Origin: Apostichopus japonicus
Lineage: Eukaryota > Echinodermata > Holothuroidea > Aspidochirotida > Stichopodidae
Reading direction: 5' to 3'
DNA length: 64,000 nucleotides
NCBI RefSeq assembly: GCF_037975245.1
Contig: NC_092569.1
Coordinates: forward strand, 33,873,668 to 33,937,667
Shown: positions 10,039-55,026 of the stretch, piece by piece
Numbering within the stretch: position 1 is the first letter of the stretch
How the letters are laid out: each line of letters opens with the position of its first letter
The notes under the pieces: generated by a model
Seen by the model: only the letters and a program-made list of their open reading frames with translations
What the model was told of the DNA's origin: nothing
Databases searched by the model: none
Made by a program: the position numbers and the translations under genes

Positions 10039-10164
10039 CTAAACTTTAACAGTCACGTCTTTATCGTCAACCTTTGCTGAGGCTGTTTCTTTTTGAGAAT
10101 CTTCACATTTCAGAGTGTCTTCTTTGTCTTGCACAAATCTACTCAGGTTTATACCACGGGCATT
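10039..10164 (-). CDS. Terminal coding exon of TRIM-like gene A1
   Basis: On the - strand a pyrimidine-rich acceptor (TTTTATTTAACAG) is followed by 41 codons and TAG. The peptide begins NARGINLSRFVQDKED and contains CEDSQKETASAKVDDKD; it is acidic and polar with no known domain. Phase 0 matches the donor of the main exon at 11791. The same exon with matching acceptor, length and frame occurs at 41104-41229 and 54901-55026, always just downstream of a TRIM main exon, and is absent only beside B1. Joining gives a protein of 818 residues (777 + 41) with an intron of 1,627 bp. Too short for ordinary ORF calling. No transcript is available, so splicing is inferred. Confidence 0.75.
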   Translation of the reverse strand, partial: NARGINLSRFVQDKEDTLKCEDSQKETASAKVDDKDVTVKV

Positions 10165-11460
10165 CTGTTAAATAAAAGAAAAAGCAACAAAATGATACTT
10201 AAAAAAACCCACATATCTGCATATTTTTCTACTTAAAGTATCAAAATTTTGTCCTCATGCTTATTGCTATCTATCTCACCTTCGAAATGATGGTAACAGG
10301 AGTCGCTCTCATGTAAAGGCTTATTAGATCAATTAATAGAGTAGAGCAATTCTCTGTGATCCAAACGAATATTACAACAGTTTAAGCAACTCTCTACTAA
10401 ATGTGCGAGATTTAATTGCAAATGTGTAATCGATTAATAAAATATATTATTTAATGAATGCCTGCATTTGGTGATTTTAACATCGCATACGCATACGTGT
10501 GTGAACAACTGCTGGGCTACTGCCTTTGACTTGGAAGATTCTGTAAGTAATTTGCAAGTAGAAAATGCATGTATAGTTGAAAATGATGAACAGGTTTGTA
10601 AATACGCACTTGATATTCGTACCTTTGTTATCATGGAACACGAGAACTATATATTTCTAAACGTATATAATTACTTAACTAATGACGTTTATCCTAGCTA
10701 TTTCTATACTCGGAACTATACTCGTAGATTCGTAGGGTTTATACGTCATGAAGTAGGCTATAGGGTCTAAATTTATCAATGAAGATATATTTACTTCATC
10801 ATTACTCACTCTCCACAACCCCTATAGTGTTCGTCCTCGCTTTAGCGATGTTATTTTCAAATTGCGTCATACTCCTTCGAAATCAACCACATTTATTTAC
10901 CTTAGCACTCAGAAAAGATGGTGTCTGGGTAAAATAACTCAATATCAGTGGGCATTTTGTTTTTCAAAACGACTCATTCTTTAATTATAATCCTACCGAA
11001 ATTTATGAATGTAAGGTAAAATAGCTTCAATTGGTCATGCATAGCTTAGTAATTAAAACAGCTTAATAATTTGAAGATAGAGGGGTGGCATAAGGTAACT
11101 TTATAAAGTCCAAACAGTCGTGCATTCTTATTCTTTCAATACAAAATAGATCATTTGCTTAAAACATATCCCTTGGTATACTTCTTACGTTAAATATTTA
11201 CCTGGCTACATGGAATATTTTTAGTGTTACTAATATATTACTATCTAGCGTGATCCCACTGCATTTTATGTTAACTATTATGACCAACACATTATGTAAA
11301 GAGATGGTTAAGACAGCTTTATGTTCTATCATGAAGTTGCAAAATGTTTTCATTAGTTGCTGAAGATATTGATTTATGAATCAGCAATGATGTATGCGGC
11401 CTTACCAAAAGCTTGGCCTAAATGTTTTAACCTCTAGATAATAAAAATAATACAGCCTTA

Positions 11461-11527
<67 letters not shown>

Positions 11528-11791
11528 AATGATAATTTCACTTTTTCCAATAAATCAATTTATTCAATAAATACGGAAATGGTAATTTCATAATGGTGTC
11601 CTCTTGAAGTTAAAAGTGGCGTTTCATCACACACTGTAGCCAATATGCATCCCAGCCTACGCAGCCTATGCCATCTTGTAATTTAGACAAACGTTAGAGA
11701 AGAGGTTGGGTATGTTTTTACTAAGCGTTGCGCACCATGACTTGATAATTTCTACAAAACACAATCGATGTTAATTTAACTAATATCTTAC
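10165..11791 (-). other. Intron of TRIM-like gene A1
   Basis: Bounded by GTAAGA and TTAACAG on the - strand. It contains a (TA)n tract and a + strand exon-like open stretch near 10830-11020 that is frameshifted in this copy. Confidence 0.65.
11464..11524. repeat. (TA)n microsatellite in TRIM intron A1
   Basis: About 30 TA units. The same intronic position holds (TA)n in A2 and B2 and only a short remnant in B1. Confidence 0.95.
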
Positions 11792-14122
11792 CATATAGAA
11801 TGCTGTTAATTCGCCGCGAGGTGTGGCCACCGCTATGCCACCAAATCCCTCCTTTGGAGTAATAGGTGCCATCATGGTGACCTTTACGTCAACTGTAAAC
11901 TCGCTGATAAAGGTTCCTTTTTGGGTATACTGCATAACTACTTTGGGTACATCTTCATCCTCTTCATCGCTTTCTGATGAACCAATGGAAGGAAAAGACT
12001 TCTGACTTTCGTCACTGCCATCTTCGTCTATGTTGTCCATGTTTGAATCGGGAATATTAAGACTTAGCCTTTCCCATAACACGTACACTAAGCCTTGTTG
12101 ATCTGCGCATATTTTCATTGGTCTATCATCGTCGTGTCGGCTGTGATACTGATATAACTGTTCGCCGAGGTCATTAATCGCCACGGCTTTACGTTTTCCA
12201 TCACAAAGGAGAAGATTTCCATCTTTAGAAGATGAGAGCGAAACAGGATGCGCCATATCATCGACCTTAATTGGGATATTTGATATTTCCTCGGCTTGAA
12301 GGTTACACCGATAAAGTGACGTTGTGCCACAGATGCCAACAATTACTTCAAGTGCATCTAACCCTTGCGTGATACATGTAACCTCTGTTTGATTAGTACT
12401 TAGCTCAAAGGGACTGCGCTCGTCTTCCCCGTCATTATCTATATAATATAGGTCTGACGAGTTATTTATGATTGCCACGAGTGAGTCTTCAATAGTATGG
12501 TTCATCTTTGCAATAAGAACCTTTCCCTCTGTGTCCTCAAATGGAAGCTCAAGTGTGTCATAGTTACCAGTTGTTAAAGTGTCCTCTGTTTCTGTATTAA
12601 AAGTGTATACCTCCGCGTTCCCATCGGCAGCAATCGCCAACGTTAGAATATATTTGTCGGAGAAAGCTCTTAGATCAGTAATTGCTTCATCGATACTAGT
12701 AACATGCAATTGATGCCATTCTTCGTCGATGAATGGAGAACGATATAAACCTAGAAAAGAAGACATAGTTTCTTTCATTTCATCTTCGTCGAATTCGCTA
12801 TCCTTTTCTTCGCCGCTGGGGATACTGCCCTTTTCGGAATCTGTCTCACCTTCAGATTCATCGCTCGTACTGCATTCAACTTCAACATCAGATCCGCTGC
12901 TGGGGATACTGCCCTTTTCGGAATCTGTCTCACCTTCAGATTCGTCGTTCGCACTGCATTCAACTTCAACATCAGATCCGCTTTCGTAATCTGAATAGCA
13001 AAAACACTTTGCAAGGTCCTGCCTCATAGAACGTGAGTCATTACGTACCCCTGAACAAGCTGTGAGAAATTCAGGGGCTGTCGAAAGAACAGACCAATTG
13101 TCAGCAGTCTCGGTTAAAACACGAGATGTTTTACAAATATTTTCCACTTTACTTTGAACATTAGTTAGGTATTTGTTTGATTTTTCAATGAAGTGTTTGG
13201 AGAACATCTTTCTAGTGTGAATCTCAAACATAATAAAGTCCTTGCCAGTTTTGAAGATTTGGAGTTTTCTTTCTGCTTTCTGTTTAATCTTCAGTTTCTT
13301 TTCTTTCAGTCTTCTCAAAGCAGATTTCATTTCTTTCTTAATTTTGTCTTTGTGTGCTTCACTGTACTCGTTGACTGTGCTTTCTAGTTTAATGTAATCT
13401 TCCTCAAGTTCTTCAAAAGCTTTTGTTAACAGTGCATCATTGCTTATCCTTTGCCTTATTTTTTTTGTAGAGGATTGAAATTTTTCTTTCATTCTATCGG
13501 CCGCTGTTGAAATTTCTTCAAACTTGTGACCAGGATGATGTATTGGAGCGCACACGGGGCATATCAACTTATCGCATGTTTGACAGCTGATATGCAAAGG
13601 CATGTCCTTGTGAGTAGGACATTTTGGTGTTTTGGATAGAGAAGTCACGGTTTGAGCATTAAATGTTACTGTGCCTGCTTCAATATCTTTTAACGTTACA
13701 AGATGAGTATGAAGTCGTAACATTTTCATCGACTTATGGCATAACATACAATCATTGCAGAGGAAACCACCACAATCAGGACATATCGCCACGACCTGCT
13801 TGGTCGTCTCACACGAACTGCAAATTTGTTTCTTGTGCTTGTCTTTCAGAGTGATCTCCAATTTCCGGCTTTCCAATATAGCTTCCAAGAGAAAATCACC
13901 TTTAAATCCATCGGCTCCACTTTCTGGTACATCTGTCTGTTGTCGACATGTAGGGCAATTGAAAATGGTATCCCTGGTAGCAATCCTATTGACAACTTGA
14001 GACAAACATTTTTTACAGAAGCGGTGAAGGCATGGTAACATTTTAGGCTCTTCCAAAGTATCAAGGCAAATGGAACAAAGTAAGATTTCCTCATCTAAGT
14101 TCGACGGGTTTGCCGTTGCCAT
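11792..14122 (-). CDS. TRIM56-like RING/B-box protein A1, main exon
   Basis: Probable E3 ubiquitin ligase. RING ligands C16, C19, C31, H33, C36, C39, C56, C59; B-box 1 at about 101-140; B-box 2 at 168-199 with the full C-x2-H-x8-C-x2-C-x4-C-x2-C-x3-H-x3-H spacing. A charged coiled coil follows (about 205-365), then an acidic Ser/Glu linker (about 374-450) and a C-terminal region of about 310 residues whose repeated short strands (for example DGNLLLCDGKRKAVAI) resemble the NHL-like propeller of TRIM56. The linker contains a tandem duplication of 28 residues. The ATG sits in a strong Kozak context (CACCATGG). The frame runs three codons past a splice donor (ATG|GTAAGA at 11792/11791) to a TAG at 11780; I take the donor as the true exon end. 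Confidence 0.9.
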
Positions 14123-17100
14123 GGTGAATTTCGATATATATTCTCCTTGAGGTTGACCTGAGTGGTGAGTGAAAAGTTACATCTGAGAGTTTATTTGCAG
14201 TATTAGGTATGTGGTAAATTAGACGCCTGTACAAAGAGGTTTACTTACAGAAATTATTATTCCTTCAAAACCACAATGGTTGTCACATTTTGATGCTGGA
14301 AACATCATTATATGTTGCGACAACGTTTACTTGTTTAGGTTCTTTCGAGAAATGTGGAAAAGGTTACTTAATCAATAGCGTAATATTACAGGGATTTTTA
14401 TTATTTATCTCGTTTTCATTACTTTTTCACCTAGCTATTTATCCGGTAGTTTTAAAATAAAAGTACGTCTTCGCATTGAGAAAGAATATCGCTTTCTTTG
14501 CTATTTTATTCTTAAGATTACTCTTTGACACAATCAACATCTTGAGATTGAAAGTAACAATAAAAAACAATAAAAATAAAAGTCACGAAAGTCACGAAAC
14601 ATTTGCATCAATTTTACACAGTGGGTCAACATTCCAATCAAATGTTGAGGCGATTATTGATACGTCGAAAACATCAACAACAAAATTAGATTATATGACC
14701 CATTCCTATTTAGAGTTTTCAAGGCAATTACATTTGGCAGCTGAAGCAAAACAACAAGCCATTCACCATCAATTGGTCGATCGCCAGCCTACAGCAACGA
14801 ATCGAAGCGGTGCAACCTTTGCCTCGGAGTAAGAGTCCCCATAGGTTAGACTTATTCTGACATGCCTAGAGAGTAAGTGTTTATGTCGGAGGACTAGTCC
14901 TCATAGGTTAGACAGAGGACTAGCCCCCCCCCCCCCCCCTCCATAGGTTAGACTTATTCTGGCATGCCCATAGAGTGTATGTGTTGTGCTTTGTTGTGAA
15001 TGCTGTCATGGTAGTTACAAGAGAGCAATACAATAGAACCCGGCTGTTCGATTATCAATTATTAGTTTGTGGTGAACTTGCTACACTGCTGTTATCATAG
15101 CCTACATGTCCGTTCAAAGAAAGGTCAAAATAATTGACGAAAAATGTTGTTAGTTAACTATAGTTTTAGTTCAGTTCACTAAAACGAAGCAGTCACGATG
15201 AAACTAAAGGTGGGCGTTGTCAGACATTTGGATTTGAGAGGGAGAGGCGCACAGAACAATATTTGATGGTCGTATGCTGAGGGTAGTTCAAGCTGGAGCC
15301 AGGGGCGACAGTGAGAGAGTGGACGCGGGACGAGGGGCACGAGGCGCAAGGCCATACGGGCGTAGGGTCTCTCTAATGGGGGTCCAATGAGGTAAGTCCC
15401 CGTAGGCTCTAAAGTTTCATCGTTTTTCAGAAAAGTATACACAGAGAACTAAGATGATCATAATTGTATGCTAAATGTTGAAAGCCATCTGGGCATCATG
15501 TATTTGACATTTAGATCAAGAAACATTTGATAAGCATCAATGTGTTAGGTATGTTAGGTAAGCATCACAATTTTGCCCGCGTATGATATTCTATGTTTAC
15601 TATACACTAACAAAACCAGCAGTATGAATACCCCATTGCACACATATATCATTCCCTATGAATTAATCCTTTCTATTGTAAAGAATATAACTTAAAAGGA
15701 TCTGTGTTTTTAAGTTGTTTAATTTACTGTACCTACAGATTTTTCAACTTAACTTCCTGTTCAAGATGACGCTTGCTACAGTTCCTGATATGGATTGTCG
15801 GTTGTACTTCCTTGTCTGGTTGTAATGATACAGTACCTTTTTAGATTCCAATGCAGTCATTAAACTTTAAACTGTCGTTTTCAATCGTGTGATAGACCTA
15901 TCTGTAGCCTTTGAACCCACATTAACATTATCGCACTTCACAAAAACTGAAAGAACTTTCCAGAGTACTCATAGTATAGATAGGCATCAATATGTTAGGT
16001 ATGCGTTGCCTTTGCTATTCTATGTTTACTATACACTAATGACACCAGCAGTAGGACTACCGTATAACACGTAATGTACAAACACACTCAATAGAGTACA
16101 CAAAGTGACAAAATATGAATATATTTACTGATTGAAGTTTAGTTCTCTTCGATGTTTGAAGGGTACAAAATGAACCTTCGATAGTTAATGTGGCAGCTGC
16201 AGAGTCATCGTTCGATATCCAACAAGCCAGTAAGGATTTTTTTTTTTATGCTAATACCTCTCTAAACTGTACTCCAATATCACGCTCTCAAAGCACTGGT
16301 ATTGACTGTACACCTGGTTCCTATCCTTGAGCTGATTTAAACATGATATTTGTACTGCTCGTACTGACAATACGAGTGCTCTGAAGCGGAACATGACACT
16401 ATTCAGCTTAGAAACAATTGTCCCAACTGGGTGTAGTCACAAGTCTGGTTTTCTCATGCAACTATATTTTGCGAATCCTGTGGACTATTTGGCACCTTCC
16501 AATCGAATGGGGCAGCGTTGGTGGGTGGGGGATGTCCAGATGATTTTTAGCTAAGATTCTGTCATCTGTGGGGCTAGTTTTCAGTTCGCAGTGCTCTTCA
16601 GCCGTGACGTTTTGGTTTCGCTGGGTGGGTGGGTTTACAAGATTTACTGATTTAATTGGTGTAAGCTGTGTGCAGGGGATTGGTTAGTTTGCTGTTTTGT
16701 GTTTGTTCTCTGTAGGTATTGTTTTTTTCTAAGGTCAGGGCAGGGCGGACGTCACATGGTACCCAGAATGACGTCATACTACAAAACATTCGTCACTATC
16801 ATCAATATTTGGATTTCCGGAATATGTTAATCAGACTAGGCTATGAACGACGTAGGTATCACCTCGAAGGAGAATTTATATCATGTGGATTTTCTAGAAC
16901 AGAATTCCACAAGGAATAAGAATATCGTGGGTAAAAAGCCCGAATCCTGAACGCAACCCCCGAAAAGGATTGTTCTTTCTTGAGGTGTGCTATTTTTTAA
17001 GGAAAAAATACCACAGGTTACATTTACATACAAAAAGGATAAAATGTGGTTTTAATAGACCATAGTTTCATAACGAATAAGAATATTTTGGGTAAAATGC

Positions 17101-17313: not shown

Positions 17314-17859
17314 CTAAACGCACTGGCGGAGCATTATGAATTTTTTTGCAAAGGTTTTTAACCGTTTAAGATATAAACTACATTCTTTCATGACTTTACC
17401 CCACGTCTTGTGCACATTATGACACCACTTTTGTCCATATAGGGCCCCCTTTGGGTGAGTTGTGTACCAATTTGTGATGACGTCACAGAAATATTTTCGA
17501 TTTTTACATTGACTTGTGTACAAAAATTTTAGTTTAAATAGGATACAAATACTCTGGGACAAATTTAAAAGTCTGTTTGCTTTGACGTACATAACAATTA
17601 TGCTCACTTCATCTCCTGAATCGCTATCATTACTGTCGCCTAGAAAGTCATCACAATCATTATCTAGAAACAGTTTTTGCACATCGAAGTCTTCCATAAC
17701 CTTCTCGGGCCATCCCAGCTCTAGTGATTCTCTCCATCCATTGTCGACAATGTTTCCAGCTTCATAACTACTTACGATCGCTGAGCGCCATTCTCTAGCA
17801 ATGAAGTTTGATCTAATAAGGATAATATAGATTTGGAATGAGCTAATGTATATGGTCAC
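17314..17859 (-). CDS. Unrecognised ORF with acidic segment
   Basis: 181 codons, start uncertain. The first 83 residues are the better part: hydrophobic start, then REWRSAIVSSYEAGNIVDNG, a Trp-rich stretch and an acidic run DCDDFLGDSNDSDSGDE, followed by a possible donor (GAA|GTGAGC). The same first part occurs at 49643-49894 with few changes. I do not recognise the family; acidic runs like this occur near the N terminus of some transposases, but no catalytic motif is visible. It may be a single exon of a mobile element or a decayed gene. The second half looks like read-through into non-coding DNA. Confidence 0.3.
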   Translation of the reverse strand: MTIYISSFQIYIILIRSNFIAREWRSAIVSSYEAGNIVDNGWRESLELGWPEKVMEDFDVQKLFLDNDCDDFLGDSNDSDSGDEVSIIVMYVKANRLLNLSQSICILFKLKFLYTSQCKNRKYFCDVITNWYTTHPKGALYGQKWCHNVHKTWGKVMKECSLYLKRLKTFAKKFIMLRQCV

Positions 17860-19269
17860 AACTTCGACAGAGATGACCTCTTTCTGTTATGATACTGTAG
17901 AGCATTACCCCCTGTTACTGTAATGCATTCATGTTTGTTATAAAGTTGATACTAAGTGGCGCCTATTCGAACTATGTTTAGATCCCACGATGCAATATTA
18001 CACGTTTTACTAGTTGCCATGATCACCGGAATTGCCAACCTTTTCATGAGCTGGTATGCTTCTAGAGTTGTAGCCATATGCCAGTAGACATGTCGATTTA
18101 TCGTGTATTATCTGACCTGAGGAACCAATGAGGTCGTCTCTTTAGAATGTTAGCAAAGGCTTTAGCATGTCTTTAGCTCTATAAGTCATCCCATTAGTTT
18201 GTGCAGATTACATCTGACCAGATATAGCGGATAGGCTGGGTGATCACATACCATATATAGTGGCTAGGCTGGGTGATCACATATAGTCTCTGACCAGATA
18301 TAGTGGATAGGCTAGGTGATCACTTATATTCTCTGACCAGATATAGTGGATAGGCTAGGTGCTCAATTATAGTCTTTGACCAGATAAAGTGGATAGGCTA
18401 GGTGATCAGATATAGTCTCTGCTTTGCAGCCTATTGTTCGACACAAGGGAGTCAGTTAGTTGACAAGGCAACCTCTAGTCTAAGTCAGTACTTGTGCATT
18501 CTTGAGGTAGTCAGAGTAAATGTTTCTTCTGGAACTAGGGCAACCAGCACCTAGTTATTGTATGAGTATCCTCTCTCGCGGGGTTACCCATGGTGGGGTA
18601 CCCCAGGGTGACCGGAATTCCATGACTGTGGGAGGGGTCAATACTTGTCCGTGTATGAGGGGTAAGGGTGTGTCATTGTGTGTGCATCCAATTATGTGTC
18701 AAAAACTCCTCCTAAACGGCTAGGCCAATTTTCTTCAAACTTGGTGGGTAGGTACTCCAGGGTAAACACTTGTGTCTTGCAGACGAATGTTAGAGGTTAA
18801 AGGTCAAATTTAGTTAAACTCGAATGAAGATCTTAATCCACTGAAATTTGTCCTTTGTTAGTACTCAATGGTCAGCTGTAAGTTAAGATATGTGCACATA
18901 TTCTTGTAATCGTCGTGATCTTTAACTATGCAGTATTCTTCTCATATAGCACTATGGAGAAACAACGAGTTTTCTACGAGGAATAAGCGGAATTCTGATT
19001 CAGCTATAAGGGAACATTTTAATGAATTTTCAATGCCACTGAAGGTTTACGGTTAGTAAAGGATTTCAGATTGTCAGGGTTCGGCGAGAGAGAGGTGCTG
19101 TATAATCAATAGGAGAACAGGACTGACTGGTTGTTGCGAATGCGGTAGACTTTAACAAACAACTATACAATTTTTTTTAAATGAGGTTGTTTTTTTTTAA
19201 AGTCGAATGAAACACTACGAAAGGCGAATGACACACTACGACAATGAATTATGTCTGCGCTCCTCGCAG
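17860..19269. other. Start of unit B1, no gene
   Basis: Paralogous to 4502-6343 in A1 without the LINE insertion. Contains the five-unit minisatellite and no supported gene. Confidence 0.5.
18216..18421. repeat. 43-bp minisatellite, 5 units (B1)
   Basis: Five units of the GACCAGATATAGTGGATAGG-type repeat, the largest array of the four paralogous loci. Confidence 0.8.
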
Positions 19270-20010: not shown

Positions 20011-22498
20011 TTAGCATAATATGTATATAAGTAATTAGAACGAAAGTCTGCAACCAGATGGAACCCAAATTACCATATGTCAAAGGCCATGTGCTATTTT
20101 AAGACGGGAAAGCAATGAATTTCAAGAAACTGTAGCTCCGCCATCCAGCTGACAAAAGCACTTACTGTGGTTTAGACCTCAAGAAAACGTTATCTACAAA
20201 ATAATAAGTCATTTTTTACTGATATTCTATCTATCATTTTTAAAAAATTTCCAAAAGAAAAGAAAAGCGAAAAAAAAATAGTAATACGAGAGATTATAAA
20301 TATGGTTTCCCAAGAACTATTTCCCTCTAATGTGCACTTCAGTTCATGTCGTTTCATACTGGATCTCAATGATTTGGTTTGATTAAGCTCACTTCTCAAT
20401 ACACCTTCATTGCACTCTACCGTTAAAATTGCAGGTAGAATAAAACAAATTAAAATCATAATTTTTCTAAAGTTCGTATTTGTGTTTGTCTGAACATATT
20501 TATTTCAAGTTTTAGGTATTGGTTAGTGGGATCATATCATGTTTTGATTCTGTAACAAAACGAAGGAGTGAAAGCCCTCTCTTATAATACAAAGGCTGCA
20601 TTTTTAATGTTAACATGAATGAATAGATCAAATTAAATTTTTCTTATGTACTATACAGTGCTGAGCCTATAATATATCCATGTTTAAGGAGGTTGGTAGA
20701 AAACAGGAACAGGTTCGGGAGGGGGTAAATCTAAGGTGACGCATAGTTCGAGGAGTGGTACAACAGACTTTGATTTGAGATCCAACAATAAAATTAGATG
20801 GAACCGTTTTGCAAAAGTGGAACCACTGTGTGGTACGTGCTATAAATTTCGATCTTTAAAGGTGTTTCCATTAATTTATTTTGTTTCCCTTAATTTTAAA
20901 ACAACGTTGCACTTTTTTAATTACCCTATTGTTAAGGATTAACAACAGGGTACATTTAGTCCGCAATTCGTCTACATATATTAAAATGAATTTCTTTTGG
21001 TTAAAATAAGTTTAGCGTTCTCATTTGATTACTTTAAGGTTTACTTTAAGCAACAAATTATCATAATTAAAACACCATGCTATCAGTCCGAGTTGTATTC
21101 TCATACAACTTTTAATTAAAAACAAACAAAACATGCATCTCATCTGTAGTTAACTTGATGGGATATACTTAGTCTAGTATACAGACCATTTGTATACGAT
21201 ACATAATTCTTTAGGAACGAAACGTGTATGGTCTCAAACGTCATATTTGCAATTGTATTAAACATTAATGTCATGCAACATTATAGTGATAAATAAATGA
21301 ACCTAGATGCTGACATCAAAGTTACCTAACATGGTTTATTCCAATGGTGTTTCAAATATATAAACAACGTAGTTTGATAAAAAATAGAGGAGTATCAAAC
21401 TATATGTGTTAACTTTAATCTCCTCATAAATACAACAAACGTAATGATATCGTTTATCATGAAAATTGATAACAATAAAAACGTATACATACGTTTATAT
21501 ACCTCTATTAAAGTTAAACTTTGTCCTTGCAACAAATATATTTTAGACCTCTTCATATCAACATCATAAACATGCTACTTTGTAACTTGTAATAGTACTT
21601 GAAAGGGAATAACATTGGTTTAAACACCCGATTCTCATGGCTTTATCAGTTAAAATTGGTAAATGGTGAGTACCTGTTCATCAGATGAAACTGGTTTGTG
21701 TTACAATTTCTTAACATGTGTTACATTTATGACCAGTTGCTACTGAAAAGGACCTATACAAACACAAAAAACTTAACACACAACTATATCCACATAATAC
21801 AAAACAGACTACTCTTAATATAAATATATATGTCCTCACAACATTATTGTGTGGCTAAGATATGAATTTATCAAATTTGGTGGTATTTACATCATTTGGG
21901 AACGGCAGAGTTAAAGATGTCAGACGGTGTTTAATGTAGTTATGAAATTCTAATTACAAAGAACCTTGAAAGTGAGGAACACATTCCAACGGTATCAGGT
22001 TTCAAGGATAAAGCAAGAAGAATTGAGATTATAAAAGAAAAATTGAAAATTTTGCAGACCATTTGCCGTTATGATATTCCAGACCACTTACTCTGATCTA
22101 TTTCTTGGGAGAATCGAAGGTTTAGTCAATGAAAAGATATTCTTCAGTTATGGACAAGATATTGAGATGAGATTACCCAATAAACAGTTATATATAACAG
22201 AATATATGTCCTTCCATATAAGTGTTACATTGTCAGCCACTGGAAAAAAAAAACTTTGAACAAGCAGTAAGTAGTACATTTAGTATGAATTTTGTATACA
22301 TATAAGAGCTAGCAAGATATAAGTATTATATTAATCGTTAGAGGGCAACATTGGTCAATATTAAATCATCCTCGATATAGGATGGAGTAGACGAAGGCCG
22401 CACTTTCCTTTACCGCATGACTGAGAATCTGTGAGTTTATATAATGGTTTATATCGTATTTTACATCATTATGCTCACCCCTTCTCCGTGTCATTCAT
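20011..22498. other. Conserved non-coding stretch of unit B1
   Basis: One copy of the 245-bp repeat near 20070 and the conserved non-coding part of the unit. No gene seen. Confidence 0.5.
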
Positions 22499-22700
22499 TA
22501 CGAGTTCAACCTGATTAGCCCTTGCTTGGTATACACTCCCCAAAAAACGATGATTTCCGGGTGTCACGTGATCTACGAAATAACCAACGTTGCTTTCCGT
22601 TTCTTTGCTAATGAAGCAGATGCAGCAGGAATATATACCTCACAAAAGAGTTGGTTGAGTAACAGCAACAGCAACAAAAGGATATTTAAAAAAAAACACA
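22499..22700. other. Deletion scar where the B1 terminal exon should be
   Basis: The left arm of the inverted repeat is present from 22499. Near 22657 the sequence jumps from CAAAAGAGTTGGTTGAG to TAACAGCAACAGCAACAAAA. In A2 these flanks are about 260 bp apart and enclose the right arm and the whole terminal exon. So B1 has lost both. Confidence 0.75.
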
Positions 22701-24259
22701 CATATCTGCATATTTTCTCTCCTTAAAGTAGCGAAATTATGTCCTGGTTATTGACATCTATCTCTACTTACAAATTATTGGTAATGTGGGTCGCTCTCAT
22801 GTAAAGACTTATTAGCTAAATTAATGAGTAGAGCAATTCACTGTGAAATATATTATTTCATATATGCCTTTGTGCATTTGGTGATTTTATACGTGTGTGA
22901 ACAACTGGTGGGCTACTGTCTTTGGCTTGGAAGATCCTGTAAGTTATTTGCAAGTAAATTATGCATGTAGTAGAAAATGATGAACAGGTTGGTAAATACG
23001 CACTTGATATTCGAACTTTGTTATCATAGAACACGAGAACTATATATTTCTAAACGTGTATAATTATTTAACTAACAACGTTTATCCTACTACACTATAC
23101 TCATAGATTCGCTGGATTCTCTGGATTTATGCGTCATGAAGTAGGCAAGAGGGTCTAAATTTATCAATGAATTAATCATATTTACTTCATTATCACTCAC
23201 TCTCCACAACCCCCATATTGCTCGTCGTCGCTATAAGCGATGTTATTCCCAAGTTGCGTCATTCTCGTCCTAAATTAACTACATTTATTTTATATTATTA
23301 CTCAGACATGATGGTGGGTAAAATAACTCCAAATGGGGATTTTGTTCTTCAAGCGACTCTTTTTTCTAATTCTAATTCTACCAAAGTTTCTGAGTGTAAG
23401 TGCATATAGCTTTAATTCGTAATTCACACAAAACATAGCTTAATAATGTAAAGATAGAGGGGTGGCATTGCTTAATATTCACAAATGAGCAGTCAAAACA
23501 GTCACGCATTCTTATTCTTTCAATATAATAACATTATTGTATTAAACATGTCCCTTTATATAATACTAACGTTAAATGTTTACCTGGCTACATGGAATGT
23601 GTTTAGTGTTACAAATATATAACTATATATAACTATGTAGTGTGATCCCACTGCATATAACTATTATAATCAACAGATTATGTGATGAGATGGTTAAGAA
23701 AGCTTTATTTTCTGTCATAAAGTTCCTTGCAAAATGTTTTCATTAGTTGCTGTTGATATTGAATTAAGAATCAGAAATGATGTATGCGGCCTTACCAAAA
23801 TGTTGGCCTAAAATGTTTTAAACCTTTAAATATTAAATAAAGCATTACAATATATATATATATATAGCCTTACAAATTACAAAAAATGAAAAGAAAAATC
23901 AGATTGAAATTTGTATGTTCGATTTGGATTCCCAGAGCGAATTGATAGTATCCTTTTGAAGTTAAAAGTGGAATGTTAAGCTTTTTAACATTGAGATGAT
24001 AATGGCACTTTTTACAATAGATCAATTTAGTCAATGAAAACGAAAACGGTATTTTCATGATGGTATCCTCTTGAAGTTAAAAGTGGCGTTTCATCACACA
24101 CTGCAGCCAACATACATCCCAGTCTACGCAGCCTATGACATCTTGTAATTTAGACAAACGTTAGAGAAGAGGTTGGGTATGTTTTTACCTAAGCATTGCG
24201 CACCATGACTTGATCAATTTTACAAAACACAATCGATGATAAATTAACTAACATCTTAC
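22701..24259. other. Region downstream of TRIM B1 (former intron)
   Basis: Collinear with the introns of the other three genes, with a short (TA) tract at about 23849-23866 and a + strand exon-like frame at 23218-23409. No acceptor plus terminal exon found. Confidence 0.5.
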
Positions 24260-41103: not shown

Positions 41104-41229
41104 CTAAACTTTAACAAGCACATCTTTATCGTCGACCTTTGCTGAGGCTGTTTCGTTTTGAGAATCTTCACATTTCAGGGTGTCTTCATTGTCTTGCACA
41201 AATCTACTCAGCTTTATTCCAAAGTCATC
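41104..41229 (-). CDS. Terminal coding exon of TRIM-like gene A2
   Basis: 126 bp on the - strand after the acceptor TTTTATTAACAG: 41 codons and TAG. The peptide begins DDFGIKLSRFVQDNEDTLKC and ends KDVLVKV. Compared with the A1 exon it has seven changes and no indel, and the frame and acceptor are kept. Phase 0 fits the donor at 43842. Spliced product 788 residues (747 + 41), intron 2,613 bp. Splicing is inferred from conservation, not from transcripts. Confidence 0.75.
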   Translation of the reverse strand, partial: DDFGIKLSRFVQDNEDTLKCEDSQNETASAKVDDKDVLVKV

Positions 41230-41879
41230 CTGTTAATAAAAGAAACAGCAACAAAATGATACTTTAAAAAAACCCACATATCTGCATATTTTCTCTCCTT
41301 AAAGTAGCAAAATTATGTCCTGGTTATTGCCATCTATATATCTCTACTTACAAATTATTGGTAATAGGAGACGCTCTCATGTAAAGGCTTGCTAGTTCAA
41401 TTAATAGAGAAGAACATTTTTATGTGATGCAAAGAATACTACAACATTTTAAACAACTCTCTACTTAAGGTGAGCGATTTAATTGCAAATGTGTAATCGA
41501 TTAAAAAAATATACTATTTCATGTATGCCTTTGTGCATTTGACTCTTTTTCTAATTCTTATTCTACTGAAATTTCTGAGTGTAAGTTAAAATAGCTTTAA
41601 TTGGTCAGGCACACAAAATATAGATAATTAATTTGAAGATAGAGGGGTATCGTTGCTTAATGTTCACAAATATACAATCCAAACAGTCATACATTCTTAT
41701 TCTTTCAATATAAATAACATAATTTTATTAAACATGTCTCTTGGTATAATACTTTCGTTAAATGTTAACCTGGCTACATGCAATGTTTTTAGGGTTAAAA
41801 ATACCCACATATCTGCTTATTTTCTCTCCTTAAAGAAGCGAAATTATGTCCTGGTTATTGCCATTTATACAACACCTAA

Positions 41880-42245
41880 TTGTATTCTGGTCATTTGATT
41901 GGTCAATTGCTCGTTGATTGCATGCAAAATTCGCTCTATTCCACTATATGAAATAGAACCATGGGTTATACTTTTTTGGTAGCAATTTTTTCAATGGTAA
42001 GAGAGCAGAGAAACTTGTCTGTTCAAAACAATCTGTTGCATGAGTGCATTTTACCCATCTTAATACAATATGTTGTGTAAAACAAATAATGGTTTCCATT
42101 CGTGCAATAGTGCAAATATTTCATTCGCTGAAAGATGTTATTTGTTCCATTCAACTCGGCTGCGCCTCGTTGCATGGAACATTCCGTCTTTCAACTCATG
42201 AAATATTTGCACTATTGCACTCATAACCATTCATTATTTGTATAC
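41880..42245. mobile_element. Inverted-repeat (MITE-like) insertion in TRIM A2 intron
   Basis: A pair of arms, about 42082-42133 and 42180-42235, share GTGCAATAGTGCAAATATTTC in opposite orientation over about 50 bp. A TATA(C) motif flanks the insertion on both sides. It is absent from A1, B1 and B2. No coding capacity; class not identified. Confidence 0.6.
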
Positions 42246-43437: not shown

Positions 43438-43842
43438 CCTTACAAAAAAATTTCCGCAAAATAAAAAAAATTCTAATTTCACTTTGGATGTTCAATTTGG
43501 ATTTCCAGAGCGTATAATAGTATCCTCTTGAAGTTTAAAGTAGCGTTCTTGGGAATTTTTAAACTTCTAAACATTGAAATCATAATTTCACTTTTTTCAA
43601 TAAATCAATTTATTCAATAAATTCGAAAATGGTAATTTCATAATGGTATCCTCTTTAAGTTAAAAGTGGCGTTTCATCACACAATGTAGCCAACATGCGT
43701 CCCAGCCTACGCAGCCTATGACATCTTATAATTTAGACAAACGTTAGAGAAGAGGTTTGGTTTGTTTTGACCTAAGCGTTGCGCACCATGACTTGATAAT
43801 TTCTACAAAACACAATCGATGTTAAATTTACTAACATCTTAC

Positions 43843-46083
43843 CATATAGAATGCTGTTAATTCGCCCCGAGGGGTGGCCACCGCTATGCCATCAAATCCC
43901 TCCTTTGTAGTAATAGGTGCCATCATGGTGACCTTTCTGTCAACTGTAAACTCGCTGATCAAGGTTCCTTTTTGGGTATACTGCATAACTACTTTGGTTA
44001 CATCCTCTTTATCGCTTTCTGATGAACCAATGGAAGGAAAAGACTTCTGACTTTCGTCACTATCATCTTTGTCTATGCTGTCCATGTTCGAATCGGGAAT
44101 ATTAATACCTTGCGTCCTCCATAACACGTACACTAAGCCTTGTTGATCTGCGCATATTTTCATTGGTCTATCATCGTCGAGTCGGCCGTGATACTGATAT
44201 AACTGCTCGCCGAGGTCATTAATCGCCACGGCCTTACGTTTTCCATCACAAAGAAGAAGATTTCCATCTTTCGTAGATGAGAGAGAAACAGGATGCGCCA
44301 TATCATCGACGTTAATTGGGATATTTGATATTTCCTCGGCTTGAAGGTTACACCGATAAAGTGTCGTTGTGCCACAGATGCCAACAATTACTTCACGTGC
44401 ATCTAACCCTTGCGTAATACATGTAACCTCTGTTTGATTAGTACTTAGCTCAAAGGAACTGCGCTCGTCTTCCCCGTCATTATCTATATAATATAGGTCT
44501 GACCAGTTATTTACGATTGCCACAAGTGAGTCTTCAATAGTATAATTCATCTTTGCAATGAGAACCTTTCCCTCTGTGTCCTGAAATGGAAGCTCAAATG
44601 TGTCATAGTTACAAGTTGTTAAAGTGTCCTCTGTTTCTGTATTAAAAGTGTATACCTCCGCGTACCCATTGGCAGCACTCGCCAACGTTAGAATATATTT
44701 GTCGGGGAAAGCTCTTAGATCAGTAATTGCTTCATCGATACATGTAACATGCAGTTGATACCATTCTTCGTCGATGAATGGAGAACGAGATAAACCTGGA
44801 AAACAAGACATGGTTTCTTTCACTTCATCTTCGTTGTACTCGCTATCCTTTTCTTCGCTGCTGGGGATACTGCCCTTTTCGGAATCTGTATCACCTTCAG
44901 ATTCGTAGTTTTTACTGCTTCCACTTTCTACATTAGATCCGCTTTCGTTATCTGAATTGTTAAGACATATGTTAAGGTCCTGCCTCATAGAACTTAAGTC
45001 ATTAAGTACCCCTGAACAAGCAGTGAGAAATTCAGGGGCTGTCGAAAGAACAGACCAATTGTCAGCAGTCTCGGTTAAAACACGAGATGTTTTGCAAATG
45101 TTTTCCACTTTACTTTGAACATTGGTTAAGCATTTGTTTGTTTTTTCAATGTAGTGTTTGGAGAACATCTTTCTAGTGTGAATCTCAGACATAATCCAGT
45201 CCTTGCCAGTTTTGACGATTCGGAGCTTTCTTTCTGCTTTCTGTTTAATCTTCAGTTCCTTTTCCTTCAGTCTTCTCAAAGCAGAGTCCATTTCTTTCTT
45301 AATTGCATCTTTTTGTGTTTCAGTGTACTCATTGACTGTGCTTTCTAGTTTAATGTAATCCTCCTCAAGTTCTTCAAAAGGTTTTGTAAACACTGCACTA
45401 TTGCCAATGCTTTGCCTTAATTCTTCTGTAGAGGTTTGAAATTTTTCTTTCATTCTATCGGCCGCTGTTGAAATTTCTTCAAACTTGTGACCAGGATGAT
45501 GTATTGGAGCGCACACGGGGCATATCAACTTATCGCATGTTTGACAGCTGATATGCAAAGGCATGTCCTTGTGAGTAGGGCATTTTGGTGTTTTGGATAG
45601 AGAAGTCACGGTTTGAGCATTAAATGTTACTGTGCCTGCTTCAATATCTTTTAACGTTACAAGATGAGTATGAAGTCGTAAAATTTTCATTGACTTATGG
45701 CATAACAGACAGTCATTGCAGAGGAAACCACCACAATCGGGACATATAGCCACGACCTGCTTGGTCGACTCACACGAACTGCAAATTTGTTTCTTGTGCT
45801 TGTCTTTCAGAGTGATCTCCAATTTTCGGCTTTCCAATATAGCTTCCAAGAGAAAATCACCTTTAAATCCATCGGCTCCATTTTCTGGTACATCTGTCTG
45901 TTGTCGACATGTAGGGCAATTGAAAATGGTATCCCTGATAGCAATGTTGTTGACAACTTGAGACAAACACATTTTACAGAAGCGGTGAAGGCATGGTAAC
46001 ATTTTAGGCTCTTCCAAAGTATCAAGACAAATGGAACAAAGTAAGATTTCCTCATCTAATTTCGACGGGTTTGCCGTTGCCAT
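43843..46083 (-). CDS. TRIM56-like RING/B-box protein A2, main exon
   Basis: 747 codons to the donor (ATG|GTAAGA); open frame continues to TAG at 43831. RING ligands C16 to C59 as in A1, with the longer A-type loop (NNIAIRDTIFNC); B-box 1; canonical B-box 2 (C168 to H199); coiled coil; a shorter acidic linker (one copy of the 28-residue element, with a diverged start rich in Ser/Asn); NHL-like C-terminal region ending AVATPRGELTAFYM. Probable cytoplasmic E3 ubiquitin ligase. The intron to its terminal exon is larger than in the sisters because of the insertions at 41.5-42.25 kb. Strong Kozak ATG. Confidence 0.9.
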
Positions 46084-49642: not shown

Positions 49643-49894
49643 TTAATCTTCTGAATCGCTATCATTACTGTCGCCTAGAAAGTCATCACAATCATTATCT
49701 AGAAACAGTTTTTGCACATCGAAGTCTTCCATAACCTTCTCGGGCCATCTCAGCTCTAGTGATTCTCTCCATCCATTGTCAACAATGTTTCCAGCTTCAT
49801 AACTACTTACGATCGCTGAGCGCCATTCTCTAGCAATGAAGTTTGATCTAATAAGGATAATATAGATTTGGAATGGGCTAATGTATATGGTCAC
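49643..49894 (-). CDS. Unrecognised ORF with acidic segment, second copy
   Basis: 83 codons matching the first part of the ORF at 17314-17859 (same REWRSAIVSSYEAGNIVDNG segment and acidic DSNDSDS run). It ends at a TAA that coincides with the possible splice donor (TAA|GTAAGC). Near-identity may only reflect the recent block duplication, so it is weak evidence for selection. Confidence 0.3.
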   Translation of the reverse strand: MTIYISPFQIYIILIRSNFIAREWRSAIVSSYEAGNIVDNGWRESLELRWPEKVMEDFDVQKLFLDNDCDDFLGDSNDSDSED

Positions 49895-50239
49895 AACTTC
49901 GACCTCTTTTCTGTTATGATACTGTAGAGCATTACCCCTTGTTACTGTAAAGCATTCATGTTTGTTATATGGTTGATATTAAGTGGCGCCATTACGAACT
50001 ATGTTTAGATCCCACGATGCAATATTACACGTTTTACTAGTTGCCATGGTCACCGGAATTGCCAACCTTTTCATGAGCTGGTATGCTTCTAGAGTTGTAG
50101 CCATATGTCAGTAGACATGTCGATTTATCGTGTATTATGTGACCTGAGGAACCAATGAGGTCGTCTCGTTAAAATGTTAGCAAAGACTTTAGCATGTCTT
50201 TAGCTCTATAAGTCATCCCATTAATTTGTGCAGATTACA

Positions 50240-50362
50240 TCTGACCAGATATAGCGGATAGGCTAGGTGATCACATACCAGATATAGTGGATAGGCTAGG
50301 TGATCACATATAGTCTCAGGCCAGATATAGTGGATAGGCTAGGTGATCAGATATAGTCTCTG
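50240..50362. repeat. 43-bp minisatellite, 3 units (B2)
   Basis: Three units at the position paralogous to the five-unit array in B1. Confidence 0.75.
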
Positions 50363-51223
50363 CTTTGCAGCCTATTGCTCGACATAAGGGTGTCAGTTAG
50401 TTGACAAGGCAACCTGTAGTCTAAGTCAGTACTTATGCATTGTTGAAGTAGTCATGCAGAGTAAAAGTTTGTTCTGGAACTAGTGCAACCAGCACCTAGT
50501 TATTGTATGAGTAACCTCTCTCGGGTGGTTACCCATGGTGGGGTACCCCAGGGTGACCGGAATTCCATGACTGTGGGAGGGGTCAAGACTTTTCTGTGTA
50601 TGTGGGGTTAGGGTGTGTCATAGTGTGCATCTAATTATGTGTCAACAATTCCTCCTAAACGGCTAATTTTCTTCAAACTTGGTGGGTAGGAACTCCAGGG
50701 TAAACACATGTGTCTTGAAGAGATGTTAGAGGTTAAAGGTCAAATTTAGTTAATCTCGAATGAAGATCTTAATCCATTAAAATTTGTCCTTTGTGAGTAC
50801 TCAGTGGTCAGCTGTAAGTTAAGATATGTGCACATATTCTTGTAATCGTCGTGATTTTTAACTATACAGTATTCTTCTCATATAGCACTTATGGAGAAAC
50901 AATGAGTTTTCTACGAGGAAAAAGCGGAATTCTGATTCAGCTATAAGGGAACATTTTAATGAATTTTCAATGCCAATGAAGGTTTACGGTTAGTAAAGGA
51001 TTTCATACTGTCGAGGTTTTTGAGAGAGAGGTGCTGTAGAATCAATAGGAGCACAGCACTAACTGATTGTTGCGAATGCGGTAGACTTTAATAAACAACT
51101 ATACATATTTTTTAAATGAGGTTGTTATTGTTTTATTAAACCAATACGGACGAAACATGCTGACCGCGCAAGAAAGTCGAATGAAACATTACGACAATTA
51201 ATTGCTGTCTGCGCTCCTCGCAG

Positions 51224-52056
51224 ATGCCTCGTATTTCTTTTACCAACAACCTGGATATGCGAGAGATTGTAAGGATGTCTTTGAACAATGTGACGAGGAG
51301 TCGTCTGAGAGGGGTCTACCTCATACAGCCTGACGGATATATGGAACCATTTGCTGTTAACAGTAACAACCCTATAAATGAAGGAGGCTTGCTGGATGGT
51401 ATACATTACTTTATTATAACATCTGATCTCTGCATGATCACCATTAGACTATGTGAATTCAAAGTATTTCGGAGACATACTTTTGAGAACCGAATAGATT
51501 CATTTGTTACTTGCTAATTACATCAAAACAAATTTTTATAAAAATAGGATGACTAAATTTTGCATATAAAACGGTATTTGTATTGTTCCAGAATAGTTAG
51601 AGAGTTAGATAATAGTCAACCGTGAGCAAATTAAACAAGGATTGTACTGCCACGTGACTCTAAATATGGATAGAAACACTAAGAAATTCAAGTGCATGGA
51701 AATGATTTACAAAAAAAAAATTAAGTAAATGTTGATTTGCACAAGATATTCAAGTGAATGATGATTTTCACAATCCTCAATGCCTAGCAGAAAGTTGGCG
51801 TGATAGTTACAAATCTCTGTTATCAATATTGTTTATTTTCATGACAGGTTACGATGCTTGCCAACCAATAGAGGAATGGCTTTCTCAACAAGAGATCGTG
51901 ACAATGAACGTTGGACTTCTCTCAGCGCTGATTAGTATAAAAACGGCTGGTGAATCAAGACTGTTCTCACGCTCTTCCGAACTTTTCCGTGGATTGATGG
52001 CCCGCCCTCATTTGTATAACTTTCCTGGTGGTAATCACAACATCCAACTTATATAA
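51224..52056 (+). pseudogene. Fibrinogen-related (FReD) pseudogene fragment, B2
   Basis: Begins after a CAG acceptor with ASYFFYQQPGYARDCKDVF, so it lacks the TAA of the A copies; this is the least decayed N-terminal part. One extra base near 51308 shifts the frame before GVYLIQPDGYMEPFAVN. In the second part a small indel at about 51859 and stops (TAG, TGA) break STRDRDNERWTS...YKNGW. Another stop falls in the terminal IQLI-IKIRP segment. A 97-residue open frame at 51224-51517 joins the wrong frame before the lesion to the right frame after it, so it is not a real protein. Confidence 0.75.
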
Positions 52057-54608
52057 ATAAAGATACGGCCTTTGTTATGCCACAATATTCGATTCTGGAT
52101 AGCTTAGCATAATATGTATATAAGTAATTAAAACGAATGTCTGCAACCAGATGGAACCCAAATTACCAAATGTTAAAGGCCATGTGCTATTTGAAGACCG
52201 GGAAACCAATGAATTTCAAGAAACTGTAGCTCCGCCCTCCAGCTGAAAAAGCACGTATTGTGGTTGAGACCTGAAGAATACATTATCTCCAAATAATAAA
52301 TAATTTTCAACTGAAATTCTCTTTAGCATTTTTATTGACATGTACTAGATATTAAAAATTTTCCAAGAAAAAAGAAAAGCGAAAAAAAGAAAAGTAATAC
52401 AAGAGCTTCTCAATATGGTTTCCCAAGAACTATTTCCCTCTAATGTGCACTACAGTTCATGAAGTTTCGTATTGGATCTCTATGATTTGGTTTGATTAAG
52501 CTCAATACACCATCATTGCACTCTACCGTTATTATTACAGGTAGAAAAGGTAGAAAATATTAATATAATAATATTTCTAAAGGTCGTATTTGTGTTTGTC
52601 CGAACAAGTTTAGGTATTGGTTAGTGGGAAAATATCATTTTTTTGATTCTGTAACAAAAAGGAGTGAAAGCCCTCCCTTAAAATATAAAGGCTGCATTTT
52701 TAATGTCAACATGAAAACTTGAAGACTTGTGTACTATACAGTGCTGGGCCTATAATATATCCATGTTAATGGGGGGGGGGGGTTAGAAAACAGGAAGGGG
52801 TTCGGGAGAGTGGTAAATCTAAGGGGACGCATAGTTCGAGGAGTGGTGCAAACAGACTTTGATTTGAGATCCAAACAACAGAATCATATGAAACCGTTTT
52901 CAAAAGGGAAACCTCTGTGTGTTACGTGCTACAAATTCCGGTCTTTAAATGTGTTGCCCTTAATTTTACAACAACGTTGCACTTTTTAATTACCCTATTG
53001 TTATTGGATTAACAACAGGATACATTTAGTCCGCAATTAGTCTACATGAAATAAAAAGAATTTCTCTTGTTTAAAATAAGTTTAGCGTAATATTTATATC
53101 TCATGATGTCTCATTTGATTTCAAGGATTACTTTAAAGATAACTTTAAGCATCAAATTATTATAATTAAAACATATGCTGCTAGTCCGAGTTGTATTCTT
53201 ATACAATTTAAATAAAAAACAAACAAAACATGCAGCTCATCTGTAGATAACTTCATGGGCTATACTAAGTCTAACACACAGACCATTTGTATACGATAAA
53301 TAATTCTTTAGGAACGAAACGTGTATGGTCTCAAAAGTCATGTTTGCAATTGTATTAAACATTAATGTCATGCAATATTTTAATGATATTTACATGAATC
53401 GAGATGCCGACATCAAAGTTACCTAATATGGCTTATTCCAATGGTGTTTCAAATATATAAACTACGTACTTTGATGAAGTAGTATCAAACTAGATGTGTA
53501 AACACTACTATCCTCATAAAAACAACAGAGTACGTAATGAAATCGTTCATCATGAACATTGATAACAATAAAATCGGATACATACGTATAGACACGTCTA
53601 TTAAAGTTAAACTTTGTCCTTGCAACAAAATATAATTGTTTTAGGGCCTCTTCATATCAACACCTTACACATGCTACTTTGTAACATGTAATTGTACTTG
53701 AAAGGGAATAACATTGGTTTAAACACCCGATTCTCATGGTTTTATCAGTTAAAACTGGTAAGAGGTGAGTACCCGTTAATCAGATGAAACTGATGTGTGT
53801 TACAATTTCTTAACATGTGTTACATTTATGACCAGTTGCTACTGAAAAGAACCTATACATACACAAAATACTTAACACACAATTATATCCACATAATACA
53901 AACCAGACTACTCTAAATCTCAATGTTTATGTCCTCACAATATTATTGTGTGGCTAAGATATGAATTTATCAAATTTGGTGGTATTTACATCATTTGGCA
54001 GACGGCAGAGTAAAGATGGTAGACGGTGTTTAATGAATTCATGAAATTCTAATTACAAAGAACCTTGACAGTGAGGTTTCAAGGATACAGCAAGAAGAAT
54101 TGAGATCATAGAAGAAAAATGGAAAGTTTTGAAGACCATTTGTCGTTATGGTATCCCGCACCACTTCTATTCTATGATCTATTTTTAAGGAAAATCGACG
54201 GTTTAATCAATGAAAAGAAGTTACAGCCAATCGGCCAGTTCTTCAGTTACGGACAAGATATTGAGATGAGATTACCAATAAACAGTTACATATAAAATAC
54301 AATATGTCCTTCCATATATGTGATACATTGTCAGCCACTGGAAAAAAAAAAACATTGAACAAGCAGTAAGTAGTGCATTTTGTATGAAGTGTCTTTTCAC
54401 TATTTTATAAATGAAAGAGCAAGCAAGAAATAAGAATTATTCATTACTAGAGGGCAACATTGGTCAATATTAAATCATCCTCGATATAGGATGGAGTATA
54501 TTATGGTCACAGTTTCCTTTATCGATTGACTGAGAAGCTGTGAGTTTATATAATGGTTAATATGGTCTTTTACATCATTATGATCACCCCTTCTCCGTGT
54601 CATTCATT
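52057..54608. other. Conserved non-coding stretch of unit B2
   Basis: One copy of the 245-bp repeat and the shared non-coding DNA of the unit; G run near 52770. No gene. Confidence 0.5.
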
Positions 54609-54871
54609 ACGAGTTCAACCTCATTAGCCCTCACTGGGTATAACACCCCCCCCCCCCCCCAAATAGATGATGATATCCGGGTATCTCGTGATCTACGAAG
54701 AAACCAACGTTGCTTTCCGTTTCTTTGCTAATGAAGCAGCTGCAGCAGTAATATACCTTACAAAAGAGTTTAATGAGTAAGATAAGGAAGAGAGATTTTT
54801 TTTTTAAGATCGTAGATCACGTTTTTCTTTCCGGGTATAAACCAAGTGAGCGCTCACCAGGTTGAACTCGT
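54609..54871. repeat. Long inverted repeat in TRIM 3' flank (B2)
   Basis: Left arm from 54609 (ACGAGTTCAACCTCATTAGC), right arm about 54809-54871, again just beyond the TRIM stop codon (54901-54903). A C run of about 14 interrupts the left arm near 54650. Confidence 0.7.
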
Positions 54872-54900
54872 AAGATAAGTCATCGTCATTAAATAACGTC

Positions 54901-55026
54901 CTAAAGTTTTACAATCAGGTCTTTATCGTCCACCTTTGCTGAGGCTGTTTCGTTTTGAGAATCTTCACATTTCAGAGTTTCTTCCTTGTCTTGCACAAAT
55001 CTACTCAGCTTTATGCCATAGTCATT
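54901..55026 (-). CDS. Terminal coding exon of TRIM-like gene B2
   Basis: 126 bp after the acceptor TTTTATTTAACAG: 41 codons and TAG. The peptide begins NDYGIKLSRFVQDKEETLKC and ends KDLIVKL. It keeps length, frame and acceptor relative to the A1 and A2 exons although A and B types split before the block duplication, which is the best evidence that this exon is under constraint. Spliced product 770 residues (729 + 41), intron 1,765 bp. Confidence 0.78.
   Translation of the reverse strand, partial: NDYGIKLSRFVQDKEETLKCEDSQNETASAKVDDKDLIVKL

What the first reader, a model, noticed from the sequence alone, without database searches (positions are those of the whole stretch)
10039..55026. Hidden 41-codon terminal exon shared by three of the four TRIM-like genes
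Open frames end three codons past a conserved donor (ATG|GTAAGA). Exons at 10039-10164, 41104-41229 and 54901-55026 have the same length, acceptor, phase and stop, and a conserved core (SRFVQD ... ETASAKVDDKD). A gene model based on the long frame alone would miss the real C terminus.
Basis: partly seen in the sequence, partly recalled or inferred. Interest (0 to 1): 0.75.

Follow-up and report, generated by a model that had tools for sequence, protein, structure and literature searches.

The report
Ancient C-terminal exon of sea-cucumber TRIM genes
Five related sea-cucumber TRIM genes on two large contigs each have a likely short last exon 1 to 4 kb beyond the long reading frame; public gene models already use it in several of them, it is predicted to add a small helix after the protein's propeller domain, and a sister gene lacks it because of a deletion.

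Summary
The window is Apostichopus japonicus (contig C9). Joining long frame and proposed exon gives, letter for letter, NCBI proteins P0002 (gene 1, 818 aa) and P0001 (gene 3, 788 aa), so public models already have the exon. Gene 4's NCBI "isoform X2" (P0004) equals a second donor 7 bases downstream joined to the same acceptor, which shifts frame and drops the tail. Gene 2 keeps the donor but lacks acceptor and exon (about 253-bp deletion). Similarity among the three copies proves little, because their introns are as similar. The decisive test lies outside the window: a fifth, ~30%-identical neighbour has the same phase-0 donor and a matching tail exon beyond an unalignable 4,043-base intron, and a paralogue on contig C3 has the same split. 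Among 12,264 AG-started open frames in 284 kb these four C9 exons score best with tails from outside the array, the weakest of them tied with a chance frame. AlphaFold2 puts the junction at the end of an NHL-like propeller and makes the proximal tail a helix. No transcripts were seen; the tail's function is inferred. Solid, ordinary gene anatomy, with a natural set of tail-less relatives.

The parts
11792..14122 (-). Gene 1 main coding exon (RING, B-box, predicted long helices and propeller), ends ATG|GTAAGA
11786..11791 (-). Gene 1 donor GTAAGA (phase 0)
10039..10164 (-). Gene 1 terminal exon, 41 codons + TAG; joined product identical to NCBI P0002
24248..26560 (-). Gene 2 frame, ends MVRC*; identical to P0003 (source not shown); donor GTAAGA kept at 24254-24259
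22659..22662 (-). Gene 2 deletion scar (TTA on both sides of the missing stretch): acceptor, terminal exon and part of the 3' flank missing, about 253 bp relative to gene 1
43843..46083 (-). Gene 3 main coding exon, ends ATG|GTAAGA
41104..41229 (-). Gene 3 terminal exon; joined product identical to NCBI P0001 (788 aa)
56792..58978 (-). Gene 4 main coding exon, ends ATG|GTAAGA
56785..56791 (-). Gene 4 seven-base extension when the second donor (GAG|GTTAGT, GT at 56783-56784) is used; product ends MVRE* and equals NCBI P0004 isoform X2
54901..55026 (-). Gene 4 terminal exon, one acceptor for both donors; in-frame product 770 aa
1..723 (-). 5' part of a fifth, divergent TRIM gene; continues into L004, where donor (last exon base C9 33872252), 4,043-b intron and terminal exon (C9 33868131-33868208) follow the same plan

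Best explanation
The three 126-base stretches match public gene models as the last coding exon of a sea-cucumber TRIM family, likely joined by a conserved phase-0 splice just after the last strand of a predicted NHL-like propeller and predicted to add a short helix plus a loose acidic tail. The split and the tail motif (G at tail position 4, bulky residues at 7, 10 and 11) are shown in DNA for genes 1, 3, 4, the neighbouring fifth gene and one gene of a second array on contig C3, so the split most likely predates these subfamilies. Gene 2 lacks the exon. Gene 4 would make tail-bearing and tail-less forms from two donors 7 bases apart. I infer that the helix rests on or next to the propeller and tunes substrate binding or stability, and that tail-less forms end about where TRIM2 and TRIM3 end. 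The confidence given is for the exon being a genuine, ancestral coding exon; the functional part is less sure.
For: Joined genes 1 and 3 equal NCBI P0002 and P0001; gene 4 with the +7 donor equals P0004 'isoform X2'; the contig length listed for P0001-P0004, 37,464,776, is that of C9. P0005 (BSL78_07653, another A. japonicus record) has the same tail. P0006 (no organism named; 71% identical to Holothuria leucospilota P0009) and P0008 (H. leucospilota) have matching tails right after the same strand; P0006 versus gene 3: 8 of 17 identical, 0 of 100,000 shuffles as good. Fifth gene: about 30% identical overall, no blastn match between its intron and those of genes 1, 3, 4, yet donor ATG|GTAAGT in phase 0 and tail NGYGEMLTKFVLERE; versus gene 4's tail 7 of 17 identical, 0 of 50,000 shuffles. 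Scan of 12,264 AG-started open 15-codon frames in 284 kb, both strands: with all reference tails the three exons and gene 5's exon score 30.0, 29.1, 24.4, 22.6, next 11.0; with only the tails from outside the array (P0006, P0008, P0011) they score 18.0, 18.0, 13.0 and 19.7, gene 1's 13.0 being tied with a chance frame. P0011's gene on C3 is split at the same point: AGG|GTAAGG ... TTTCAG|ACT, phase 0. AlphaFold2: last strand ends at residue 747 (P0001) and 697 (P0006), tail helix 749-760 (block pLDDT 80) and 699-713 (83, 76); in the VIA-align lists NHL domains come first and their alignments stop between 2 residues before and 10 after the junction.
Against: No transcript, read or peptide evidence was available; NCBI models are predictions and I could not see their support. 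No protein equal to gene 4's in-frame 770-aa product was among those fetched. Among genes 1, 3 and 4 the exon is no more conserved than the intron; third-position excess is 9 of 17 variable columns, P 0.061. Lack of indels (0 in 126 columns against 30 in 1,522 intron columns outside the AT repeat) is only mildly unexpected. Gene 1 has no AATAAA or ATTAAA in 9500-10164, whereas introns of genes 1, 3 and 4 do have such motifs. A protein search with the C-terminal part of P0001 found 6 proteins, 5 of them A. japonicus or window proteins. Some tail pairs are weakly alike: P0008 and gene 3 share 2 of 17 residues, 527 of 100,000 shuffles as good; P0008 and P0010 1,379 of 100,000; gene 5 and P0011 123 of 50,000. 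Hydrophobic moment exceeds shuffles clearly only in P0010/P0011 (8 and 10 of 20,000) and marginally in P0006 (856), not in the window's copies (3,445 to 8,451), P0005 (3,457) or P0008 (6,538), so an amphipathic helix is not shown. The P0001 model is poor overall (mean pLDDT 53.8), the two models share most of their alignment rows, and residues 767-788 are below 50. Gene 1 has R at tail position 3 where the others are bulky.
Confidence: 0.9

Rival explanations
1. The long frame is the real end (MVR[YCG]*), and the downstream open stretch is a duplicated remnant that is not spliced in.
For: Similarity of exon and intron is equal among genes 1, 3, 4; gene 2 has no exon, and P0003 (source not shown) equals its unspliced frame.
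Against: Identity of joined products with P0001 and P0002; same split in the fifth gene and in P0011's gene; P0006 carries the tail in a protein listed from contigs of at most 4,377 bases.
Confidence: 0.04
2. Both ends are used: the donor is alternatively spliced, retained or shifted, and the tail is a regulated switch between tail-bearing and tail-less proteins. This can be true together with the best explanation.
For: P0004 isoform X2 equals the +7 donor product of gene 4; that donor scores 87.0 against 85.1 for the main one in gene 4, 74.0 in genes 2 and 3, no GT in gene 1 (frequency table recalled); P0007 and P0009 end like read-through (MVCNS..., MV*); AATAAA motifs lie inside the introns of genes 1, 3 and 4.
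Against: Only one gene has a public second isoform among the proteins fetched; the read-through-like records may be annotation or genomic-contig artefacts; regulation was not tested.
Confidence: 0.3
3. The tail is the fourth (d) strand of the last propeller blade, so proteins without it have an incomplete propeller.
For: The motif G..LS.F..D resembles the preceding blade's G.[FL]ISEF.VD (seen by eye).
Against: Two AlphaFold2 models make it a helix after the last strand; solved NHL domains, among them TRIM2 described as full C-terminal (7qrv), end there.
Confidence: 0.1

Closest known systems
TRIM2/TRIM3 (TRIM-NHL E3 ligases)
   Same: RING and B-box by sequence, long helices and a propeller by predicted fold; top sequence matches in the PDB are TRIM3 and TRIM2 (8amr, 8ams), and their NHL domains are among the best VIA-align matches (7qrv, 7qrw)
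   Different: No Pfam NHL hit; the chain continues past the point that aligns with residue 744, where 7qrv and 7qrw end, through a separate exon; acidic low-confidence insert inside the propeller region
Brat and Mei-P26 NHL domains
   Same: Highest VIA-align Z (1q7f 24.4, 7nyq 24.3)
   Different: 11-13% identity only; RNA binding not tested
Holothuria leucospilota proteins named TRIM33 (P0008) and TRIM56 (P0009)
   Same: Same family, 36% and 45% identity over the match; P0008 ends with a related tail
   Different: P0008's tail stops after 17 residues and P0009 ends CMV; the 24-residue extension is seen only in the A. japonicus C9-type copies
Apostichopus C3 array (P0010, P0011)
   Same: P0011's gene has the same phase-0 intron before a tail with EYGRHLTSLM
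   Different: 25-26% identical overall; separate array in which some matches hold in-frame stops

Membership tests
TRIM (RBCC) family | N-terminal RING finger | tested here: met
   PF00097 above its cut-off in 4 of 4 full-length genes; matched in 12 of 13 family members scanned
TRIM (RBCC) family | B-box zinc finger | tested here: met
   PF00643 above its cut-off in 4 of 4 genes; 13 of 13 members
TRIM (RBCC) family | Coiled coil after the B-box | tested here: inconclusive
   Helices 201-271 and 276-337 in the AlphaFold2 model of P0001 at low pLDDT, 203-272 and 276-340 in that of P0006; dimerisation not tested
TRIM-NHL subfamily | NHL repeats recognisable by sequence | tested here: not met
   No NHL family listed at E up to 10 for 7 proteins (HMMER's filters drop most matches above about 0.1)
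TRIM-NHL subfamily | NHL-type propeller fold | tested here: met
TRIM-NHL subfamily | Filamin/Ig domain between coiled coil and NHL (some members; recalled) | not tested
   not searched separately
E3 ubiquitin ligase | Ubiquitin transfer with an E2 | not testable with these tools
   needs an assay
Spliced terminal exon | Donor, acceptor and phase consistent in the tail-bearing copies examined | tested here: met
   5 of 5: genes 1, 3, 4, gene 5, P0011's gene
Spliced terminal exon | Junction seen in transcripts | not testable with these tools
   no reads held; NCBI models only

The most novel reading that the evidence does not exclude
The tail is a holothurian regulatory cap on an NHL-type E3 ligase. 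An ancient terminal exon adds a helix at the end of the propeller, and members of the array switch it off by different routes: exon deletion in gene 2, a 7-base shifted donor in gene 4. The array therefore holds tail-bearing and tail-less ligases that differ in partners or stability.
Probability: 0.25. Interest if true: 0.5.

Novelty: new member of a known kind. Interest (0 to 1): 0.3.

Why it matters
Anyone modelling these proteins from the long frame gets a wrong C terminus, and read-through-like database entries (P0007, P0009) may carry that error. The locus also offers a natural comparison: closely similar ligases with and without the tail, which makes its role directly testable.

Tried and rejected
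Conservation of the exon among genes 1, 3 and 4 as proof: rejected, because introns are equally similar. Length of the open frame as proof: rejected. dN/dS: below 1 but on 17 variable columns, so weak. Tail as a propeller strand: disfavoured by two models. Amphipathic helix by hydrophobic moment: not supported for the window's copies. A substitute exon for gene 2: three acceptor-like sites with at least 14 of 20 pyrimidines in 20200-24259; none resembles the tail, longest frame 30 codons; left open. Further family members nearby: tblastn at 1e-8 with 5 proteins over 284 kb showed only the four genes, their exons and gene 5. A PDZ-like ending (V-K-V, V-K-L, V-Q-V) was noticed in the A. japonicus C9-type tails (printed); P0006, P0008 and P0011 end otherwise, and it was not tested. 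A realignment of the gene 2 scar placed gene 2 wrongly; I used and the letters. Whether the joined C3 product equals P0011 letter for letter was not checked; its main part matches C3 at 99% and the tail letters are in the DNA.

Literature: 14 of 15 papers listed; 15 of 6,015; none; 7 of 8; 10 of 442; none. I saw listings and starts of abstracts only and opened no paper; none listed is about these sea-cucumber genes or this exon, which says little about the unlisted ones or papers outside the library.

Selections: alignments used 9 (A1) and 13 (A2) of the 51 hits. One search gave 52 hits, four of them new (P0052-P0055), not read for a tail. Tail tests left out P0007 and P0009, which run into or stop in the intron.

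Full report
What is there. The window is from the sea cucumber Apostichopus japonicus: the best-scoring named proteins are A. japonicus proteins, and the own-genome search places it at contig C9 33,873,668-33,937,667 of a 671.6-Mb assembly in 35 contigs. It holds four full-length TRIM-type genes on the minus strand in a tandem array, 732 to 780 codons as open frames, with RING and B-box domains, plus the start of a fifth, more distant gene at 1-723.

The observation. Each of the four frames reads ATG|GTAAGA and stops three codons past the donor. Genes 1, 3 and 4 have a 126-base stretch downstream (introns of 1,627, 2,613 and 1,765 bases) with a good acceptor, phase 0 and 41 open codons. The coordinates given are exact.

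Why similarity alone is not enough. The array is made of similar repeated units. Between genes 1, 3 and 4 the exon differs at 12 or 13 of 126 sites per pair, the intron at 6.4 to 11.5%. Pairwise dN/dS of the exon is 0.57, 0.57 and 0.32, against 0.38 to 0.82 over the six pairs of main frames. Nine of 17 variable columns are third positions (P 0.061). There is no indel in the exon, against 30 in 1,522 fully aligned intron columns outside the AT repeat and 3 in 297 columns of the 3' flank. These point the right way without proving the case.

Public models already have it. Joining 14122..11792 to 10164..10039 gives 818 residues identical to NCBI protein P0002; 46083..43843 to 41229..41104 gives 788 residues identical to P0001. 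Gene 4 joined in frame gives 770 residues, with no identical protein among those fetched; but P0004, which NCBI calls isoform X2, is identical to the product of a second donor 7 bases downstream (GAG|GTTAGT) joined to the same acceptor. The frame shifts and the protein ends MVRE. A simple donor score (frequency table recalled, not from a call) gives 85.1 for the main donor in all four genes and, for the +7 site, 87.0 in gene 4, 74.0 in genes 2 and 3, and no GT in gene 1. That may be why a second form is listed for gene 4; this is inference. I could not see what evidence NCBI used.

Gene 2. The alignment shows one gap that removes the end of the pyrimidine tract, the acceptor, the exon and part of the 3' flank. 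The letters at the scar share TTA on both sides, and relative to gene 1 about 253 bases are missing (counted from the letters). The donor remains. Its frame equals P0003, ending MVRC; whether P0003 is a public model or only the window's own frame is not shown. Because gene 5 and the C3 gene have the exon, loss in gene 2 is more likely than gain in the others.

Independent test outside the window. In the next 10 kb the fifth gene ends its long frame with CAC ATG|GTAAGT in phase 0. After a 4,043-base intron comes TTTCTTTCGTGAACAG and an exon reading NGYGEMLTKFVLERETAEECVETKI and a stop. This gene is about 30% identical to the others, and blastn finds no match between its intron and theirs. I then scored every AG-started open 15-codon frame in the 284 kb around the array on both strands, 12,264 in all. 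With all reference tails, among them the window's own, the three proposed exons and the fifth gene's exon come first (30.0, 29.1, 24.4, 22.6; next 11.0). With only the tails from outside the array (P0006, P0008, P0011) the fifth gene's exon leads at 19.7, genes 4 and 3 follow at 18.0, and gene 1 scores 13.0, tied with a chance frame.

A second array. A search with P0011 finds its gene on contig C3 around 16.87 Mb at 99% identity, the match ending at residue 678 of 699. The DNA shows CCAAAGG|GTAAGG and, after 1,008 bases of intron, TTTCAG|ACT GAG TAT GGA in phase 0, encoding the P0011 tail. So 5 of 5 tail-bearing genes examined, from three divergent groups on two contigs, have the same split; genes 1, 3 and 4 are close copies and not independent.

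How it most likely works. Shown: splice signals, phase, tail motif, absence in gene 2, public protein models. Predicted: helix after the propeller. Inferred: splicing in the animal, the helix resting against the propeller and affecting binding or stability, and tail-less forms differing in this. I give about 0.9 that the exon is a genuine, ancestral coding exon and about 0.25 that switching the tail on and off is biologically used.

Novelty. Six searches of an open-licence paper library (listings only, two of them cut far below the number of papers found) showed no paper on this exon; the exon itself is in public protein models. It is a new member of a known kind.

Noticed in passing
window 60391-64000 (+), continuing into L005 1-585: LINE-type retrotransposon: frames with endonuclease (PF03372) and reverse transcriptase (PF00078) matches, next to gene 4 of the array.
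   Followed up: partly
window 1-723 (-), L004: Fifth TRIM gene, about 30% identical to the other four, with the same terminal-exon plan.
   Followed up: yes
G000 C3 16.81-16.90 Mb: Second array of the family: three matches covering nearly all of P0011 without stops, beside matches with several in-frame stops, as if some copies are pseudogenes.
   Followed up: partly
G000 C1, C2, C10, C17: Many further TRIM-like open frames of about 480-820 codons in clusters, matching mainly the RING/B-box part (65 matches listed, 64 of 455 candidates scored).
   Followed up: no
window about 12815-12985 (-): Gene 1 has a duplicated acidic segment (GSDVEVECS...EKGSIPS twice) in the linker before the propeller; the linker differs in length between the genes.
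   Followed up: no
window 17317-17886 and 49646-49978 (-): Similar frames (...DCDDFLGDSNDSDS...) in two intergenic units, no Pfam match.
   Followed up: partly
window 41335-42220 (-): Gene 3's intron is about 0.9 kb longer than those of genes 1 and 4; the extra part holds repeated intron sequence and an inverted repeat at 42102-42220.
   Followed up: no
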